A stretch of DNA of 64,000 nt from Chthonomonadaceae bacterium. Lineage in GTDB: Bacteria > Armatimonadota > Chthonomonadetes > Chthonomonadales > Chthonomonadaceae. The DNA lies in the NCBI GenBank assembly GCA_027459665.1, contig DAIDHN010000003.1, positions 1 to 64,000 of the forward strand, in the 5' to 3' direction. This document shows positions 1-49,279 of this stretch, piece after piece. Numbering within the stretch: the stretch's first letter is position 1; each line of letters opens with the position of its first letter. The position numbers and the translations under genes were made by a program. The notes beneath the pieces are model-generated. The model made no database searches. It had not been told where the DNA came from and saw only the letters and a program-made list of their open reading frames with translations.

Positions 1-167
1 CTACAACCCGCCGCCCAGGTTCAACCCGCAGCCGCAGCGAAGTGCACCGCACTACAACCCGCCGCCCAGGTTCAACCCGCAGCCGCAGCGAAGTGCACCG
101 CACTACAACCCGCCGCCTAGGTTCAACCCGCAGCCGCAGCGAAGTGCACCGCACTACAACCCGCCGC
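1..167 (+). repeat. 51-bp tandem repeat, three units plus a partial fourth
   Basis: Units start at 1, 52 and 103, with a 14-base partial at 154. The period is exactly 51 bp, so reading frame is kept. The only difference between full units is a silent C-to-T at 118 (CCC to CCT), which implies recent duplication or strong homogenisation. The array may extend left of the window. Confidence 0.95.
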
Positions 168-10773: not shown

Positions 10774-12378
10774 GTGGAGATTGAATGGCATGTGACAGGC
10801 AATCCATGGCATGACTGGGGCCTAGTTGAGCTGTACAATATCATGAGTGAACCTGAAGTGCGCGACATTGCAACACTCACCTTGCCTTCGCCTATGGGTT
10901 TTACCATGAGAAGCAATGCCGGGGTTGAAGAACTTTCTCGGGTTTTGACACGCGTACTTACCAGTGCCAGAAGGTGGAACGACCTGCACCCACGCTTTCC
11001 TGAAGGGCGTGTGATATCCCGCTGTCAGCCGCAAGTAGTAGACGGCCGCAGAAAGCCAGGGGAGGAATACGAGGAAAAGGTGAGCCTGCAGGAGTGGCAG
11101 AGTGCAGGATTGAATGGAAAGCCGCCATCTGCTGTTCGAAACCGATGCCAGCGGCTAGTCAATGTGCCCATTACCACGCGTGATGTCGAAAACCTCCTCA
11201 ATCCAGATGGCAGTAATTCAATCTACACAGTGGTAAAAGCTGCTCTGTCTCAAGGTGAAATGCTCAAGATGACACAAAGGTACAACCCTATGGTGGCAAA
11301 ACACCATAGCAACATTACAGTGCGCGGGCCAGGTGGATCCAATGGTGCGATTGAATCACCTGCTGGTCAGGTGCTGGCATCTCTTTGTGCAAGCCTCAGC
11401 CCGGATAAACCGTTTGCAAAAAATAATGATGCTACGGTCATTTTACTGCCAGTCAGTCTGCCCTTTGATTTGGCGGTGAGATTCCGCGATTTTCTCCGCA
11501 GTACGCTGGTTCATCCAGATGACGTGAATGGTGAAATGTATCGAAATATTCCCCTCCGTGTAGATGGGGACGCAGCGGAACTGCTGGCGTTGCTGCATGC
11601 CATGGTGACATCGATGGCAGAACACAGCACAGACCTTATAACGATGGATGAGGTTCGCACCATTCGACGATGGATAGCGATTCATATTACCATTAGCGAA
11701 AATGTAATTGTTGGTGCGATTCATGCCATGCAAACTGGCCAGGTATTGCTTGAGTTACTGGAGCCGATTAGATTTGAAAACATACAAACTTCCAAAGAAG
11801 AAACCGAACAGCCTCTAGTCTCGTTTATGCAGGATGTATTCTGCCAGATAAGACTGGAAAACCACCCCTGGCAAGAGCGTGTTGCAAGTGCAATGCTGAT
11901 TGCAGATTCGAATTTGCAGGAGGCATGGCGAGGGCTAACCAATTGTGCATTTGAACTTGGCAAATCTGTTTCACAGGCTGGCAAAACAAATAGAAGAGCA
12001 GCCAGACTGCTTTCATTGTTCTATTTCCATTTCGCAGGGAGGTTAACTACCATGACACCAGAGCAGCTGTTGAGCTGCAAGAAGATTGGAGAATTAGTAG
12101 GCAGCGCTTTTCACCGGGATGTAACACTGCTCTCACGACTTCACAATGCCACCAGCCCTACCGAGCTGCGTTCCATACTTGAGCTTGTAGCATTCCGCCT
12201 GTTTAAAGCCAGCAACGGACCGGATAGAACTCAACTTTGGCACCTAAGCGCTGGTGAGTATGAGGAACTGTTACAAATTACCCATACCCCCAACTGGCAG
12301 GCTGCAGCGCAAACAATAAGTGCATTTGCAAGCCTGAAAGCATTCAACATCAACCTGGGTGAGGAGAATAAAAACTGA
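10774..12378 (+). CDS. cas8: Divergent type I Cas8-like large subunit
   Basis: 534 residues from GTG 10774, with AAAGGAGG five bases upstream. Position directly before cas7-cas5-cas3 and size are those of a Cascade large subunit, which recognises the PAM and recruits Cas3. The N-terminus WHVTGNPWHDWGLVEL (residues 5-20) resembles the TGNPFxDxG start of Cst1/Cmx1-type Cas8 proteins (from memory). Little else is recognisable. The zinc-finger CxxC pairs found in many Cst1 proteins are absent. The rest is mostly helical, with a long C-terminal half rich in Leu and Ala. The assignment rests on context plus that one motif. The stop overlaps the cas7 ATG (TGATG). Confidence 0.7.
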   Translation: MEIEWHVTGNPWHDWGLVELYNIMSEPEVRDIATLTLPSPMGFTMRSNAGVEELSRVLTRVLTSARRWNDLHPRFPEGRVISRCQPQVVDGRRKPGEEYEEKVSLQEWQSAGLNGKPPSAVRNRCQRLVNVPITTRDVENLLNPDGSNSIYTVVKAALSQGEMLKMTQRYNPMVAKHHSNITVRGPGGSNGAIESPAGQVLASLCASLSPDKPFAKNNDATVILLPVSLPFDLAVRFRDFLRSTLVHPDDVNGEMYRNIPLRVDGDAAELLALLHAMVTSMAEHSTDLITMDEVRTIRRWIAIHITISENVIVGAIHAMQTGQVLLELLEPIRFENIQTSKEETEQPLVSFMQDVFCQIRLENHPWQERVASAMLIADSNLQEAWRGLTNCAFELGKSVSQAGKTNRRAARLLSLFYFHFAGRLTTMTPEQLLSCKKIGELVGSAFHRDVTLLSRLHNATSPTELRSILELVAFRLFKASNGPDRTQLWHLSAGEYEELLQITHTPNWQAAAQTISAFASLKAFNINLGEENKN

Positions 12379-13295
12379 TGGAAGCACTCTGCGTCTCAAT
12401 TGTCTGGCTGAGCAAAACAGACCTTAGCAACATGAACAGCGGTGAAGGCGGCGGGGGAAATGTTGTAGAACTAAAAACATACCGCGCGGGCAGGCGGCCC
12501 TATATGAGCGGTCAATCGGTACGACACGCACTGCGGGAGGCCATAGAGCGAGCCAACCCAGGCTGTTTTACTTCCACACCCGAAGCGCCTTCCTGCGATA
12601 TTGCCAACGACTGGCTGTGCGATCTTTTCGGGTTTCTTAGCCCCAAAAAGGGGGAGGGAAGCAACCGGCGCTGGTCGCCCATAAAGTGCACCCCCGCGCT
12701 GGGACAGCGGGACTGTGAGATAGTAAGCGACCTACTGCTGCGAATGAGCGACCTGGAGAAAAGCGATGACAATGCTGCACGCGATCAACGCCTCGCATAT
12801 GTACAGCTTACTGAAAACATATATCGCATTGGCCTAAGCATAGATGTATTCAACATAGGCCGACGGCTGGTGGTGGAAGGCGACAGCAAAACAAAGACAA
12901 TTACTCGCAGAGCATTCGAGGAACTCATCGACGCAAATGAGCGCACTAGGCGTGTTAAAGCTGTCATTGAGGCAGTAGGTAGAATGGGTGATTTTGCAAA
13001 GCAGGCGCGTAATGCAACCAGTATGGCTCCAGATATTTTTCTGGGTGCAGTGTCTCCTGTTTATACTCAGCGAGGACTGCGTGCGCTGGAACTGGATGAT
13101 AACGGCGATGTAGACGTGAACGCACTGGCAGCTATCGTTGCAGATTTGCAGGAGGTGGGTGCATATGTCATTTTGGGTCACACTCCCGGTGTAGTTGGCA
13201 ACGATGCTGCCCTGCTGGAGGTCTGCAGCAACACCGGCGTTGAGGTGGGTTATCCTGCCGCTATGCTCAGGAAGCTTGCAGAGAAGGTACAGTAA
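12378..13295 (+). CDS. cas7: Cas7 (DevR/Cst2-like) Cascade backbone protein
   Basis: 305 residues. It polymerises along the crRNA to form the Cascade backbone. The N-terminus SIVWLSKTDLSNMNSGEGGG is the usual first strand and Gly-rich loop of the DevR/Csa2/Cst2 family, and ELKTYRAGRRPYMSGQSVRHALREAI is the highly conserved RRM segment with the GQSxRxAxR motif. FLGAVSPVYTQRG is a later family-like segment. It overlaps cas8 by one base and is followed one base after its stop by cas5. A Gly-rich stretch GEGGGG lies at about residues 22-27. Confidence 0.88.
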   Translation: MEALCVSIVWLSKTDLSNMNSGEGGGGNVVELKTYRAGRRPYMSGQSVRHALREAIERANPGCFTSTPEAPSCDIANDWLCDLFGFLSPKKGEGSNRRWSPIKCTPALGQRDCEIVSDLLLRMSDLEKSDDNAARDQRLAYVQLTENIYRIGLSIDVFNIGRRLVVEGDSKTKTITRRAFEELIDANERTRRVKAVIEAVGRMGDFAKQARNATSMAPDIFLGAVSPVYTQRGLRALELDDNGDVDVNALAAIVADLQEVGAYVILGHTPGVVGNDAALLEVCSNTGVEVGYPAAMLRKLAEKVQ

Positions 13296-13296
13296 G

Positions 13297-14031
13297 ATGG
13301 GCCAAGAAGTCTGCCTCGGCCTGCGGTTAATACCACCTTTCTGGTGCAGCTTTCGCGACCCTGTTGGTAGCAACGTTCACAGAACTTTCCCTTTGCCGCC
13401 TCCTGCCACCTTATTTGGGTTGGTGGGCGCGGCTCTCGGGCTTACCCAGCATGACTACTCGCGCAGAGATGAAATGCGTTTTACTGCCGCCATAGAGTCG
13501 TCGGGCGAAATGGTGGAGAGCTACAGTAAATGGATGAAATTTGCGGAGAAGGCGAAAAATAGCAATCAGACTGCCGCCTGGCTGGCCATGCGCGAGCGTG
13601 GTCTTCTTACTGCCGATGTTAGCCAGTGGATATCCACCACTCTCATAAGACAGAAGCTGGTGCAGCCTGTATTCATTGTTGGCATTCTGTGCAATGAGTC
13701 GGTGGCAGTGGAAATTCAGCAAGCGTTTGCCCGGCCGTTTTTCCCGTTGTGCCTGGGTGAAAGCGATGACCCTGTGGATGTGGAGGTAATCGGCATGGAA
13801 GTACCAGTCAGCGCAAATGGCCCTGCTACCGGACTGGTAGACGGTGTTAGTGCAGGTGGTGTATTGGCCAATATGCCAACACGCTTTTCACAGGGCAGGC
13901 GAGGCAAGTGGGAGGCAACCCGCTGGCTGGTCACCGTACCAGATACCACCTCTGGCATAGAGATTCGCGTGCCAAACATGGTCACCTGTCATGGCCATAC
14001 ATGGCATTTTGAACCCCCGCCTGCAATCTGA
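13297..14031 (+). CDS. cas5: Cas5 Cascade subunit
   Basis: 244 residues from ATG 13297, one base after the cas7 stop. Cas5 caps the crRNA 5' handle. The N-terminus is typical: LRLIPPFWCSFRDPVGSNVH then RTFPLPPPATLFGLVGAALG, with the Phe/Pro-rich loop and the small-residue helix of the RAMP fold. The C-terminus has the Gly-rich RFSQGRRGKWEAT. No cas6 exists in this operon, so this protein might also process pre-crRNA, as Cas5 does in subtype I-C. That idea is inference; the sequence looks more like Cas5 of I-A/I-B-type systems than of I-C. Confidence 0.85.
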   Translation: MGQEVCLGLRLIPPFWCSFRDPVGSNVHRTFPLPPPATLFGLVGAALGLTQHDYSRRDEMRFTAAIESSGEMVESYSKWMKFAEKAKNSNQTAAWLAMRERGLLTADVSQWISTTLIRQKLVQPVFIVGILCNESVAVEIQQAFARPFFPLCLGESDDPVDVEVIGMEVPVSANGPATGLVDGVSAGGVLANMPTRFSQGRRGKWEATRWLVTVPDTTSGIEIRVPNMVTCHGHTWHFEPPPAI

Positions 14032-14057
14032 ACAAATGGTTTGCCCAATCGCAAAAT

Positions 14058-16454
14058 ATGTCGACGCATCGGTATGCCAAACAATTTTTCTGTTGGCAGC
14101 AATCAGGAGTGCGAATATTGACAAGCATTCTCGCAAAGACAAACCCGCCACAGCAGTTGGAGGATCACCTGTTGGCTGTTAAGTCGGAAATTACCGCTTT
14201 GCTGACGCCCGCCAGACTGGGCGCTTTCTTAAGGCTGGGTATACCTTCAGATGAAGTAATCGAGCTGTGCCAAAGTGCTGCATGGCTGCATGACTATGGC
14301 AAGGCGACAAAGGAATGGCAAAATGCTGCCTGCAGCGGCCGCCGTCTTCCACAACATTCCATGACGGGGTTTTATGCGGCGCTCCTGCATTACGGCGAAA
14401 TAGATTCATTACCGTGGCAGCACGCTGCGGTATGTGCTGCGGTTCTGGCCCACCACCACCAGTTGCACGACCATTCATTTGCGCGTGATAATCACAGCCA
14501 GAAAGTAACCCCGTTGTTTACAGAATGGAAGAGACTCAATGATATATGCGGCTGGAGTATTCGTGCCGAAATAAAGCCTGGAAGTTCACTCTCAGAAAGC
14601 CGCCTAAGTGGGCTTGTGAACGAATTCAAGGTGTATGTACGGAATCGGACGAGAGAGAAAGACAACAGCCGATTCCATGCTCTATACTGCCTCATTCTTT
14701 CTCTACTTGTAACTGCCGATCACCAAGCATCTGCAAAGCACAGCGGTAAAGCTGTGTTGGATTTCGGTTTACTCACGCCACCAACCAACCATTATGAGGC
14801 AACCGAATTTCAATTGGAAGTATGCAAGCATCCTGCCAGGCATCTTTGTGCTATAGCCGCTTGTGGGGCCGGCAAGACATCTGCTGCGCTCAACCGTGCC
14901 GCAGAATATGCTGAACAACAGCAGATAGACAGATTGATATTCTGTTTACCATCACGTTTTACATCCAATTCAATACTGCGTGATCTTACCGATCCACATC
15001 AATACGGATACGACCAGTCCAATGTCGCACTCATTCACGGCGAAGCGCTCACTGTCCTGAGGCAGAGGGCAGATGACAATCAAGACAGCGTAGAGCAGTT
15101 TTCCATTACAGAAGAAGATGCTCTTGCAAGATGGGGGATAAGATATGAGCACCCGATAACCGTTAGTACAATAGATCACCTGCTGATGAGTTTGTATCAT
15201 GGTTACAAATTTAGCGACAGGGCTTACGGTAATATTCTCTCATCGCTTGTTGTTTTGGATGAACTGCATTCTTACGAAACCACCACCATGAATGCCATTT
15301 TGGATGGGCTGGCCATTTTGAAACAGGTTGGCGTGCCTACCTTGATCATGTCTGCAACCCTGCCTGCCAGCAGAAGAAACTTCTTCAAAATAAGTGAAGA
15401 CCATATTGTAAAAGAACAGAAGATTATTTTTCAGCCTTGTATTTTCAAAATGTTCAAAACGCCGCTTACTCTGGGTAAGAGCCATAATATCCAGGTCGCT
15501 GACGAGGTGAATGAATTCCTCACAGCATTAGGCAAACGCAAAATTGCAGTTTATGTGAATCAGGTAGAACGAGCCAAAGCACTTGCAAACGCAGCACAAA
15601 AAGTGCTGCCACATCTCAGAATTTTTTGTTACCACAGCGAACTTGCAGGCGTAGATCGTGCAAAACTGGAAATAGAGGTGGTAAATGCGTTTCGAACCAA
15701 CCAGCCAGTTGTTCTAGTGGCAACCCAGGCCGCAGAACTGAGCCTGGATATCTCCGCAGACTATATGATTACCGAACTGGCGCCGGCAGACGTGCTTGTA
15801 CAGCGCGCAGGACGCCTTAATCGACGTGCCACTACCCCCGCACTTTCAACTGGTGAAGATGCAGTCTGCTGGGTGGCCCCAACAGGCGATCTTTTTTCTG
15901 AAGACACTGCACACACTCTGCCATATACCGATTTATCAGTTCTGAGGCGCACGTGGCAGTCAGCACCATGGGACAGGGTATTTAATTTCAAACTTGCAGA
16001 AGAGTGGTGTGAAACTGCACTGAGTGAGGGCATAGAACCCAAGCAATCGGGCATTCGAGCAGCACATGATGAAGATACTGTTTTCGGCAACCAGCCCATC
16101 GATAACTATAACGGCGAAGAGAGCAGCGGCAATGTTGTTATACGCGATAATGCTGATTACATCTATCCAGTACTGCCTCTTTGTTATTACTCCTGCATAA
16201 GGCTACACCCTGAAAAATACACTGTGAAAGACCTCGCACAATTTACAATTGGTCTGAGAAGATGGCGGTACTACTGGCTTCATAAAAATGGGTTCATTGA
16301 AGAGAATGTTGTACGCCTTAAAAACGTTGAGGCTTTTCACGTGAGATGCGTAATGGGAGTTACCTATAACGCTGAAAAAACCGGATTTGATTTTAGTGCG
16401 GTAAATGTTGATACTGAACTGGAGCAGCATGGTGGGGACGGTATGTTTGCCTAG
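14058..16454 (+). CDS. cas3: Cas3 HD nuclease-helicase
   Basis: 798 residues; unwinds and degrades the DNA target after Cascade recruitment. The N-terminal HD nuclease domain has AAWLHDYGKATKEWQ with H78-D79, then QHSMTGFYAALL and the AHHHQLHDH cluster as further metal ligands. The helicase has Walker A AACGAGKTS with K273, LDELHSYE with D401 (a DExH box), MSATLP as motif III, and VLVQRAGRLNRR (Q582) as motif VI. Nuclease and helicase are one chain, and all key residues are present, so the effector should be active. It starts 26 bases after cas5. Confidence 0.95.
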   Translation: MSTHRYAKQFFCWQQSGVRILTSILAKTNPPQQLEDHLLAVKSEITALLTPARLGAFLRLGIPSDEVIELCQSAAWLHDYGKATKEWQNAACSGRRLPQHSMTGFYAALLHYGEIDSLPWQHAAVCAAVLAHHHQLHDHSFARDNHSQKVTPLFTEWKRLNDICGWSIRAEIKPGSSLSESRLSGLVNEFKVYVRNRTREKDNSRFHALYCLILSLLVTADHQASAKHSGKAVLDFGLLTPPTNHYEATEFQLEVCKHPARHLCAIAACGAGKTSAALNRAAEYAEQQQIDRLIFCLPSRFTSNSILRDLTDPHQYGYDQSNVALIHGEALTVLRQRADDNQDSVEQFSITEEDALARWGIRYEHPITVSTIDHLLMSLYHGYKFSDRAYGNILSSLVVLDELHSYETTTMNAILDGLAILKQVGVPTLIMSATLPASRRNFFKISEDHIVKEQKIIFQPCIFKMFKTPLTLGKSHNIQVADEVNEFLTALGKRKIAVYVNQVERAKALANAAQKVLPHLRIFCYHSELAGVDRAKLEIEVVNAFRTNQPVVLVATQAAELSLDISADYMITELAPADVLVQRAGRLNRRATTPALSTGEDAVCWVAPTGDLFSEDTAHTLPYTDLSVLRRTWQSAPWDRVFNFKLAEEWCETALSEGIEPKQSGIRAAHDEDTVFGNQPIDNYNGEESSGNVVIRDNADYIYPVLPLCYYSCIRLHPEKYTVKDLAQFTIGLRRWRYYWLHKNGFIEENVVRLKNVEAFHVRCVMGVTYNAEKTGFDFSAVNVDTELEQHGGDGMFA

Positions 16455-16531
16455 TAATTAAACAGGCTGATGTTAGGTAGGTTATGGTGATTGAAAACTG
16501 CAGGAAACAGCAGTTTCAGGAGGCTCAAATT

Positions 16532-17062
16532 ATGCTGGCAAATCAGTTGCGAGAATTGGGTATAGGCGGACTGGATGTGAACTACTATGTATTATGCCAA
16601 CGCAAACTATGGTGGTATAGCCATGGACTGAACCAGGAGCATGGCGAAGGTGCAGTTGGCCAGGAAAACATTGCCATTGGTCGTCTAGTTCAGGATGAGA
16701 GTTACACAGGCGAAGAGTACAAGGATATTATGATCGATGGGGTTATTCGCATTGATTTTAAAAATGATGGTATTGTGCATGAAGTAAAGAAGAGCAAAGG
16801 GGGCGCAAATGCCAGCCGATATCAGCTGCTTTACTATCTCTATTACCTGAAACAGGTCAAGGGCATCACGACAACGGGGATTATAGATTATCCATTGTTG
16901 CGAAAGCGCGAGGAAATCGTACTGGATGAACAAAAAGAACGTGATATTGTAGATATTCTTGAGGGTATCGTAGCAGTTCGCAGCAGTGATGTTCCTCCAG
17001 TTGTTGAGCAGCCCATGGGGTTATGCGCAAAGTGTGCCTACCAGGAACTCTGCTGGGGGTAG
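16532..17062 (+). CDS. cas4: Cas4 exonuclease
   Basis: 176 residues from ATG 16532, chosen because AGGAGG (16518-16523) lies eight bases upstream; an upstream ATG at 16484 has no such site. Cas4 trims and orients prespacers for Cas1-Cas2. The four iron-sulfur cysteines are C22 in YVLCQRKLWW and C165, C168 and C174 in GLCAKCAYQELCWG. The RecB-type nuclease core has IRIDFKNDGIVHEVKKSKG (Asp and the ExK pair) and RYQLLYYLYYLK (QxxxY). It is a stand-alone protein, not the Cas4-Cas1 fusion of some related systems. Confidence 0.93.
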   Translation: MLANQLRELGIGGLDVNYYVLCQRKLWWYSHGLNQEHGEGAVGQENIAIGRLVQDESYTGEEYKDIMIDGVIRIDFKNDGIVHEVKKSKGGANASRYQLLYYLYYLKQVKGITTTGIIDYPLLRKREEIVLDEQKERDIVDILEGIVAVRSSDVPPVVEQPMGLCAKCAYQELCWG

Positions 17063-17264
17063 TTTTCTTACTTCTTTTCAGCTGAGGCACATCAATGGGT
17101 CTGTGCCAGGGTACTAAGTATTGAAAGATTATCTTGCCCACTGCACACTCATTGCACAAGAGGCAGGATATTAAACTACAGTATGCACGGCAAATTTGAC
17201 CAGGCGAAGTGATAAGTATGCTCTAAAATTTATCATTTTCGTTCTCATGCGGAGGTTCATACTC

Positions 17265-18452
17265 GTGAAAAATTATTATGTTCTTTCCAATGGGCGTGTA
17301 AAAAGAGAGAATAACTCGCTGGTTGTTGAGAATAGTGACGGCGGAAAAAAGCCCATACCTGTAGAAGATGTGGATAGCCTGTACGTGTACGGCGAGGTTG
17401 ATCTCAACACTCGGCTTCTCAATTTTCTCACCACCAGGCAAATACCCCTGCATATCTTCAACTATTATGGGTACTACGCCGGAAGCTACTATCCTAGAGA
17501 GTACCTTCATTCAGGCTACATGCTGGTGCAGCAGGTAGAGCATTATAGCAACAGCAACCTGCGAATGATACTCGCAAAGGAACTCGTTCGCGCTGCTGCA
17601 CACTCAATGCAGCGCAACCTCGCCTATTACGCAAACCGCAAGGAAGGCTCAATTGAAATGGACGATAATGACGCCGAACCTGGCGGTGAGATTAGCCAGG
17701 ATGCTCCTGTCACCGCCCTGCCGCCGACGGATGAGTATGAGGAAGAAGTAATAGACGCAGCCATGACTGCACCAGCAGACACTGCGAATGAGGCTGAACA
17801 GGACTTCTTTCTGAGCTATGTAAAATTTGATGATCAGCCGCAGAGCCTGCGACTGCTTCAGTCTTCAATCAGCTGGCTGGCAGCCGATATTGATGGCAAA
17901 TCAAATATATATGACCTCATGGGCATCGAGGGTAAAATGCGTGAGCAGTATTATCAGGCGTGGCGCCACATATTGCGAGAAGGCTGGGCGTTTGAGCGCC
18001 GGGTACGGCGTCCGCCAGATAACGAGGTGAACGCCCTCATCTCATTTGGCAACTCAGTAATCTACACATCATGCTTAAGTGAAATCTACCGTACTCAGCT
18101 GGCACCGACTATATCGTACCTGCATGAACCGGGTGTCAGAAGGTTTTCCCTGGCGCTGGATCTTTCAGAGATATTTAAGCCGTTGCTTGTAGACCGGGCT
18201 ATATTCAGGTTGATCAACACAGGGCAGTTAACTGCAAAACACTTCGACAGCTCTATGGAAGGCTGTTTTCTTACCGATGCCGGCAAACGTATCTACCTGC
18301 AGGCGCTTGAAGAGCGTCTGTCGGCCACCATCAGACATCGGCGCCTTGGGAGACACGTTTCCTATCGTCACCTCATCAGGCTGGAATGCTACAAACTGAT
18401 ACGTCATTTCACGCGGGTAGAGGAATACAGGGCATTCAGAGCATGGTGGTAG
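17265..18452 (+). CDS. cas1: Cas1 integrase with an acidic insertion
   Basis: 395 residues from GTG 17265, chosen for GGAGG at 17251-17255; ATG 17247 is possible but lies before that site. Cas1 integrates prespacers into CRISPR arrays. The N-terminal beta domain (NYYVLSNGRVKRENN, IFNYYGYYAGSYYPREYLH) and the catalytic domain are canonical: E222 in LMGIEGKMREQYY, H287 in SYLHEPGVRRFS, D299 in LALDLSEIFKP. Between RNLAYYANRK and the catalytic Glu there are about 90 residues where about 30 is usual; the extra ~58 residues (about 127-185) are acidic and rich in Ala, Pro, Thr. The frame is intact through it. Confidence 0.95.
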   Translation: MKNYYVLSNGRVKRENNSLVVENSDGGKKPIPVEDVDSLYVYGEVDLNTRLLNFLTTRQIPLHIFNYYGYYAGSYYPREYLHSGYMLVQQVEHYSNSNLRMILAKELVRAAAHSMQRNLAYYANRKEGSIEMDDNDAEPGGEISQDAPVTALPPTDEYEEEVIDAAMTAPADTANEAEQDFFLSYVKFDDQPQSLRLLQSSISWLAADIDGKSNIYDLMGIEGKMREQYYQAWRHILREGWAFERRVRRPPDNEVNALISFGNSVIYTSCLSEIYRTQLAPTISYLHEPGVRRFSLALDLSEIFKPLLVDRAIFRLINTGQLTAKHFDSSMEGCFLTDAGKRIYLQALEERLSATIRHRRLGRHVSYRHLIRLECYKLIRHFTRVEEYRAFRAWW

Positions 18453-18495
18453 CCTGGAACTACATGTATAGTGTGCCGCACTCAAGGAGAATGGC

Positions 18496-18759
18496 ATGTA
18501 TGTTATTCTTGTATATGATGTAAATGAAAAGCGCGTTGGCAAAATATGCAAATACCTCAAGCGCTATTTGCCCAGAGTGCAAAACTCTGTGTTTGAAGGT
18601 GATTTGTCAGATTCGAAACTGGCAGCTATGAAAAAGGGATTGGGCAAGTTCATTGATACTGAAGAAGACTGCGTGCTGCTATGGGTTATGCGTGACGCAG
18701 CATTGGTAGACCGGCAAATAGTGGGCAGTGAGAAATTGCCTGTCAGCAATTTTATCTAG
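18496..18759 (+). CDS. cas2: Cas2 adaptation protein
   Basis: 87 residues, the standard length. Cas2 forms the dimer bridging two Cas1 dimers in the integration complex. The first strand MYVILVYDVNEKRVGKICKY carries the conserved Asp (D8), followed by YLPRVQNSVFEGDLS, the usual second half of the ferredoxin fold. It starts 43 bases after cas1, with AAGGAGA about eight bases upstream. It is the last gene of the operon; the convergent tkt terminator lies beyond it. Confidence 0.96.
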   Translation: MYVILVYDVNEKRVGKICKYLKRYLPRVQNSVFEGDLSDSKLAAMKKGLGKFIDTEEDCVLLWVMRDAALVDRQIVGSEKLPVSNFI

Positions 18760-49180: not shown

Positions 49181-49279
49181 TGGCGGGAGCGTGTAGGAAT
49201 CGAACCCACCGGGAACGATTGAGACCGCCCCCCCAACGGTTTTGAAGACCGCGCAGGCCACCAGGCCCGATGCGCCCCC
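49181..49279 (-). tRNA. selC: tRNA-Sec (TCA), selenocysteine tRNA
   Basis: About 99 nt on the minus strand. The anticodon arm GCGGT CTTCAAA ACCGT gives anticodon TCA, which reads UGA. It has an extended acceptor stem (GGGGGCG/CGCTCCC), the long D arm with GGGCCTGGTGGCC typical of bacterial tRNA-Sec, a very long variable arm (with a run of seven G) and T arm GGTGGG TTCGATT CCTACA, followed by G and an encoded CCA (49183-49181). The size and anticodon distinguish it from any serine tRNA. Together with selD nearby this shows a selenocysteine-decoding trait. Confidence 0.95.

What the first reader, a model, noticed from the sequence alone, without database searches (positions are those of the whole stretch)
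17643..17830. Acidic insertion of about 58 residues in Cas1
Between the conserved RNLAYYANRK and the catalytic MGIEG the chain has about 90 residues where about 30 are normal. The extra segment contains roughly a third Asp/Glu plus Ala/Pro/Thr and is likely disordered. It lies close to where Cas1 binds Cas2 or DNA, so it could be a DNA-mimic or partner-binding arm. The reading frame is intact, so it is not a frameshift.
Basis: seen in the sequence. Interest (0 to 1): 0.6.

Follow-up and report, generated by a model that had tools for sequence, protein, structure and literature searches.

The report
Acidic disordered arm in Cas1 integrase
The spacer-integrating enzyme of this CRISPR system carries an extra, strongly negative, floppy arm of about 63 residues that is found only in one small branch of Armatimonadota Cas1 proteins and hides two short conserved motifs, so it is a genuine and probably functional variant whose role is still untested.

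Summary
In a type I-B Cas1 (17265-18452, 395 aa, active-site E222/H287/D299 intact) the stretch from RNL to MG is 104 residues; most Cas1b have 38 and the sister lineage 41. Residues 127-189 hold 19 D/E and 1 K/R, the most acidic 63-residue stretch in the proteins of the window, and AlphaFold2 leaves them disordered. It is not an assembly error or private oddity: eight Armatimonadota genomes carry such an insert, the seven full-length ones form one clade (95/86 support), and arrays beside several hold many unique spacers. Seven of the eight inserts also contain two short motifs, PxGE[IV] and ExxVDxA[LM]: strict in the five adjacent to a Cas4 that itself has a unique 5-residue insertion, degenerate in two. 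Insert-bearing Cas1 serves different I-B and III effectors, so the arm belongs to the adaptation module. Best explanation: a tethered electrostatic arm beside the 3'-overhang path that screens the DNA-binding surface until a true prespacer displaces it, with the motif helix as docking point (Cas1 body or Cas4). The arm, its origin and motifs are shown; the mechanism is inferred (about 0.4). New variant of a known protein.

The parts
17265..18452 (+). cas1, type I-B Cas1b, 395 aa, GTG start with GGAGG at 17252-17256
   Evidence: TIGR03641 438.8 bits against cut-off 304.1; relatives start at the same MKNYY; sequence
17643..17831 (+). acidic disordered insert, residues 127-189, net charge -18
17676..17693 (+). 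insert motif 1, EPGGEI (residues 138-143), consensus [ET]PxGE[IV]
   Evidence: ungapped block score 232 in five relatives, 0 of 300 shuffles as high
17724..17765 (+). insert motif 2, PTDEYEEEVIDAAM (residues 154-167), coincides with a low-confidence helix 157-167
   Evidence: block score 353 at width 16 against shuffle maximum 206; helix in the model
17928..17930 (+). catalytic Glu222 (MGIEG)
   Evidence: invariant in 35 Cas1b
18123..18125 (+). catalytic His287 (YLHEPG)
   Evidence: invariant in 35 Cas1b
18159..18161 (+). catalytic Asp299 (LALDLSE)
   Evidence: invariant in 35 Cas1b
16484..17062 (+). cas4, 192 aa, Cas4b-like
   Evidence: PF01930 E=2.7e-43; PADLOC Cas4b
16643..16666 (+). region of Cas4 (GEGAVGQE) holding the 5-residue insertion found only in the five Cas4 beside motif-bearing Cas1
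   Evidence: alignment
18496..18759 (+). cas2, 87 aa, no unusual extension
   Evidence: PF09827 E=2.2e-21; comparison
14058..16454 (+). cas3
   Evidence: TIGR01587; PADLOC Cas3b
13195..14031 (+). cas5 (true start likely downstream of the listed TTG)
   Evidence: PF09704
12378..13295 (+). cas7
   Evidence: PF01905, TIGR01875
10774..12378 (+). protein in the cas8 position, no family match
   Evidence: position only

Best explanation
The insert is a clade-specific regulatory arm of the Cas1 integrase. It is a disordered, strongly acidic linker between the first two helices of the Cas1 C-terminal domain, beside the channel through which the prespacer 3' overhang reaches the active site. In free Cas1-Cas2 (or Cas4-Cas1-Cas2) the arm lies on the basic DNA-binding surface as a tethered electrostatic DNA substitute, lowering non-productive binding to chromosomal DNA. 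A true prespacer displaces it. The conserved pair PxGE[IV] ... ExxVDxA[LM], the second part a short inducible helix, anchors or repositions the arm by docking on the Cas1 body or on Cas4. Shown: the arm, its acidity, predicted disorder, single origin, retention in systems with spacer-rich arrays, and the motifs. Inferred: location relative to DNA (from E. coli Cas1), charge screening, displacement, and the docking partner.
For: All seven full-length inserts are net negative (-13 to -37) while the rest of each Cas1 is net positive (+11 to +20); acidity persists although the sequence outside the motifs does not align. Single origin, 95/86, sisters without the insert. Disorder predicted in the window protein (pLDDT 31-49 over residues 131-190) and again in the longest version, L033 (142-214 below 50), with a confident core. 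Motifs beyond shuffles. Insert-bearing Cas1 sit in loci with arrays of 7 to 51 distinct spacers, and the window's own genome has arrays in trans. The same arm occurs with PGING-type, Csh2-type and another Cas8b-type I-B effector and with type III effectors, so its partner is in the adaptation module or is DNA. Charged disordered arms are known to autoinhibit and can speed target search in eukaryotic DNA-binding proteins (PMC10250230).
Against: No complex with DNA, Cas2 or Cas4 could be modelled here. Cas1b without the insert are also basic (mean +11), so the arm is not needed to balance charge. One origin means that all association evidence is one evolutionary event. The arm has no long runs of D/E like the known autoinhibitory tails (longest run 3 in the window protein).
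Confidence: 0.4

Rival explanations
1. The arm is primarily a Cas4-docking element: the motif helix binds the Cas4 of the same operon, holding it at the PAM end of the prespacer, and acidity is a by-product of a soluble linker.
For: The five proteins with strict motifs all sit beside a Cas4 with a unique 5-residue insertion absent from 15 other aligned Cas4. Cas4 contacts Cas1 rather than Cas2 in the type I-C complex (PMC6519985).
Against: The link rests on one clade. The three other insert-bearing loci lack a Cas4 beside cas1: G027 has none detected in the genome, G020 only one elsewhere (beside another Cas1), and G017 has one about 5 kb away on the same contig without the 5-residue insertion; yet they keep an acidic arm.
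Confidence: 0.25
2. The insert is a tolerated loop expansion with no specific role beyond solubility; it persisted because it sits in a permissive linker.
For: Length (78-117 residues in the measured segment) and most of the sequence vary freely; the Ignavibacteriales lineage has a shorter unrelated expansion at the same site (L035).
Against: Charge sign conserved in all members and motifs conserved far beyond shuffles in proteins whose inserts otherwise do not align; never lost among the eight members found.
Confidence: 0.25
3. The arm contacts Cas2 or the leader/repeat side and tunes target choice or spacer length.
For: Insert-bearing systems include arrays with somewhat longer, more variable spacers (35-43 in G017).
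Against: Spacer lengths in G055, G006 and G020 (33-40) overlap those of the insert-free sisters (33-40); Cas2 shows no matching change.
Confidence: 0.08
4. Assembly error, frameshift or mobile insertion in this one genome.
For: None found.
Against: Eight genomes in several families share it; frame open in all full-length copies; no DNA match in the plasmid collection and no Pfam domain in the insert.
Confidence: 0.02

Closest known systems
Type I-B Cas1 (Cas1b, TIGR03641; Thermotoga maritima TM1797 4XTK, Pyrococcus furiosus Cas1-Cas2 7EI1)
   Same: Core sequence, fold (TM-score to target up to 0.94) and catalytic E/H/D.
   Different: These have a short linker (about 24-27 residues in most Cas1b) where this clade has 78-117 residues in the measured segment.
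Autoinhibitory negatively charged disordered tails of eukaryotic DNA-binding proteins (HMGB1, RFX1, Sox11, UBF1; PMC10250230)
   Same: Net-negative predicted disorder tethered to a basic DNA-binding protein.
   Different: Internal rather than terminal in Cas1; no long D/E runs; carries conserved motifs; bacterial; autoinhibition not shown.
Cas4-Cas1-Cas2 complex of type I-C (PMC6519985)
   Same: Cas4 encoded beside cas1 in five of the eight loci.
   Different: The I-C Cas1 that matched (8d3l, 8d3p) is a distant relative; whether the arm meets Cas4 is unknown.

Membership tests
Cas1b (type I-B Cas1) | Score above the curated cut-off of the subtype model | tested here: met
   438.8 bits, cut-off 304.1
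Cas1b (type I-B Cas1) | Catalytic Glu, His, Asp | tested here: met
   E222, H287, D299 invariant
Cas1b (type I-B Cas1) | Cas1 fold | tested here: met
   AlphaFold2 pLDDT at least 90 for 274 residues; Foldseek hits 4xtk, 4wj0, 7ei1
Cas1b (type I-B Cas1) | Usual (not defining) short linker between first and second helix of the C-terminal domain | tested here: not met
   104 against 38 residues from RNL to MG; this is a difference of form, not a defining feature of the family
Autoinhibitory D/E-repeat tail (HMGB1 type) | Intrinsic disorder and net negative charge | tested here: met
   pLDDT 31-49; net -18 in 63 residues
Autoinhibitory D/E-repeat tail (HMGB1 type) | Consecutive run of D/E residues | tested here: not met
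   longest run is EEE in the window insert (sequence)
Autoinhibitory D/E-repeat tail (HMGB1 type) | Autoinhibition of DNA binding | not testable with these tools
   needs binding assays
Type I-B CRISPR-Cas operon | cas7, cas5, cas3, cas4, cas1, cas2 of I-B type in one operon | tested here: met
Type I-B CRISPR-Cas operon | Recognisable Cas8b large subunit | tested here: inconclusive
   the 534-aa protein in the cas8 position matches no Pfam, NCBIfam or PADLOC model

The most novel reading that the evidence does not exclude
A CRISPR integrase with a built-in, motif-bearing acidic arm that mimics prespacer DNA and gates access to the integration site, handing over to Cas4 through a conserved docking helix; no such arm in Cas1 turned up in the papers searched.
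Probability: 0.15. Interest if true: 0.75.

Novelty: new variant of a known kind. Interest (0 to 1): 0.42.

Why it matters
How Cas1-Cas2 avoids sitting on or integrating into host DNA is an open question. A removable electrostatic arm found in one clade, with insert-free sisters as natural controls, would make that question testable by deletion and transfer experiments. If the motifs bind Cas4, they give a handle on how Cas4 is recruited in type I-B systems.

Tried and rejected
Sequencing error or frameshift: rejected, eight genomes share the insert and the frame is open. Known domain in the insert: no acceptable Pfam match in five inserts and no PDB sequence match. Mobile origin: no DNA match in plasmids. 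Relatives on viral contigs: none; phage records gave only partial, distant matches. Coupling to a particular effector: rejected as the general explanation because effectors differ. Compensating extension in Cas2: none seen. New basic patch on the Cas1 body specific to the clade: only weak hints, residues 224 and 389. The first repeat pattern had one base too many and missed the arrays, a second was too strict; a corrected pattern found them. A survey of other phyla with the genome search was not possible because a centre must be a genome handle.

Full report
What is there. The window is from an Armatimonadota genome: one near relative returned in the same order (G027) is the record titled Chthonomonadales. 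A type I operon runs from 10774 to 18759: a protein in the cas8 position without family match, cas7, cas5, cas3, cas4, cas1, cas2. Cas1 scores 438.8 bits against the I-B Cas1 model (cut-off 304.1). The listed ORF opens upstream at TTG 17196, but relatives start at the equivalent of GTG 17265, which has a GGAGG eight bases upstream, so Cas1 is taken as 395 residues. The active-site residues E222, H287 and D299 are invariant in 35 aligned Cas1b.

The insert. From RNL to the MG of MGIEG the window protein has 104 residues. Most of the Cas1b collected have 38, and the nearest insert-free relatives, from the same phylum, have about 41 (segment lengths again). Residues 127-189 (17643-17831) hold 19 acidic and 1 basic residue; no other 63-residue stretch in the 41 long ORFs of the window is as acidic. 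AlphaFold2 with 35 sequences gives a confident Cas1 core and pLDDT 31-49 across residues 131-190, between helix 97-123 and helix 191-207. The model's fold matches solved Cas1, best 4xtk, 4wj0 and 7ei1. A second prediction, for L033 with the longest insert, also leaves residues 142-214 below 50. Low pLDDT is evidence for disorder, not proof.

Distribution and origin. A search of 291 genomes of the phylum with the long-form alignment found seven full-length insert-bearing Cas1b and one partial (G009, whose frame is lost near a contig end), while other Cas1b of the phylum are short. A scan of one genome per species in GTDB release 220 returned long acidic inserts only in two records, both of them the same genomes of this phylum; the 8-residue pattern filter of that scan means distant cases may be missed. 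In a tree built without the insert columns the seven full-length long forms are one clade, support 95/86, next to the insert-free G082, G098 and G240. So the arm was most simply gained once.

Constraint on the insert. Across the seven, the measured segment runs from 78 to 117 residues and its net charge from -13 to -37, while the rest of each protein is +11 to +20. Most of the insert does not align, but five members (window, G006, G055, G087, G009) share [ET]PxGE[IV] and, within about 22 residues after it, ExxVDxA[LM] or a close variant. Block scores were far above 300 shuffles, and the strict pair never appeared in 20,000 shuffles of any of the five. G027 and G017 keep a degenerate pair, defined after looking at them (shuffle frequency 0.0001 and 0.0019); G020 has none. 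The second motif coincides with the first of two low-confidence helices in the low-pLDDT segment of the window model, residues 157-167.

Partners. The five strict-motif loci have a Cas4 beside cas1 with a 5-residue insertion that is absent from 15 other aligned Cas4. The G027, G017 and G020 loci carry type III genes and no adjacent Cas4; G017 has a Cas4 about 5 kb away on the same contig, without that insertion. This correlation is one clade against the rest, so it is suggestive only. Effectors differ: Csh2-type I-B in G055, PGING-type in G087, another Cas8b type in G006, type III in the other three. The arm therefore goes with the adaptation module, not with an effector. Cas2 shows no unusual extension.

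Activity. Arrays with 7-51 distinct spacers lie in the insert-bearing loci of G017, G020, G055, G087 and G006, so Cas1 with the arm is compatible with spacer acquisition. The window has no array beside cas2, but 25 copies of a matching repeat core occur on contigs C19, C26, C72 and C78 of its genome, three of these clusters starting within 55 bases of a contig end.

Mechanism. The insert is one helix away from MGIEG. In E. coli Cas1 the residue just before the first Gly of that motif, Arg138 (position from the E. coli sequence, own knowledge), contacts the 3' overhang (PMC6395717), and the overhang threads through the C-terminal domain of Cas1 to the catalytic site (PMC10011333). A flexible negative arm there could cover the positive channel until DNA displaces it. 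This is how negatively charged tails of eukaryotic proteins such as HMGB1 autoinhibit and can speed target search amid decoys (PMC10250230). The Cas1 arm differs from those tails in being internal, in lacking long D/E runs and in carrying motifs. Charge screening is favoured because the charge is shared by all members, including those without adjacent Cas4 or without motifs; docking by the motif helix is proposed as an addition. None of the binding steps was tested.

Verdict. A real, single-origin, clade-specific elaboration of a known enzyme with signs of functional constraint and an untested mechanism. Searches of the held library for acidic or disordered insertions in Cas1, and for Armatimonadetes Cas1, returned no paper that appeared from title and abstract to describe it; the library is not complete.

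Noticed in passing
window 10774-12378: The 534-aa protein in the cas8 position matches no Pfam, NCBIfam or PADLOC model at E 0.01; possibly a divergent large subunit.
   Followed up: partly
own genome C19:38401-39090, C26:53-343, C72:39-197, C78:49-418: CRISPR arrays lie in trans, not beside cas2; repeat core TTTCCATTCCACAATGGTGCGGTTAAA.
   Followed up: partly
own genome: No match to Pfam Cas6 (PF10040) and no cas6 in the operon, although arrays exist; other Cas6 models were not tried.
   Followed up: partly
window 16643-16666: Cas4 carries a 5-residue insertion found only in the five Cas4 beside motif-bearing Cas1.
   Followed up: yes
window 1-167: Nearly perfect 51-bp tandem repeat at the contig start.
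   Followed up: no
window 49181-49279: tRNA-SeC gene predicted by ARAGORN, suggesting selenocysteine use.
   Followed up: no
L035 4197-5360: An Ignavibacteriales Cas1 has a shorter Gln/Gly/Ser-rich expansion at the same site, not acidic: an independent, milder expansion.
   Followed up: partly
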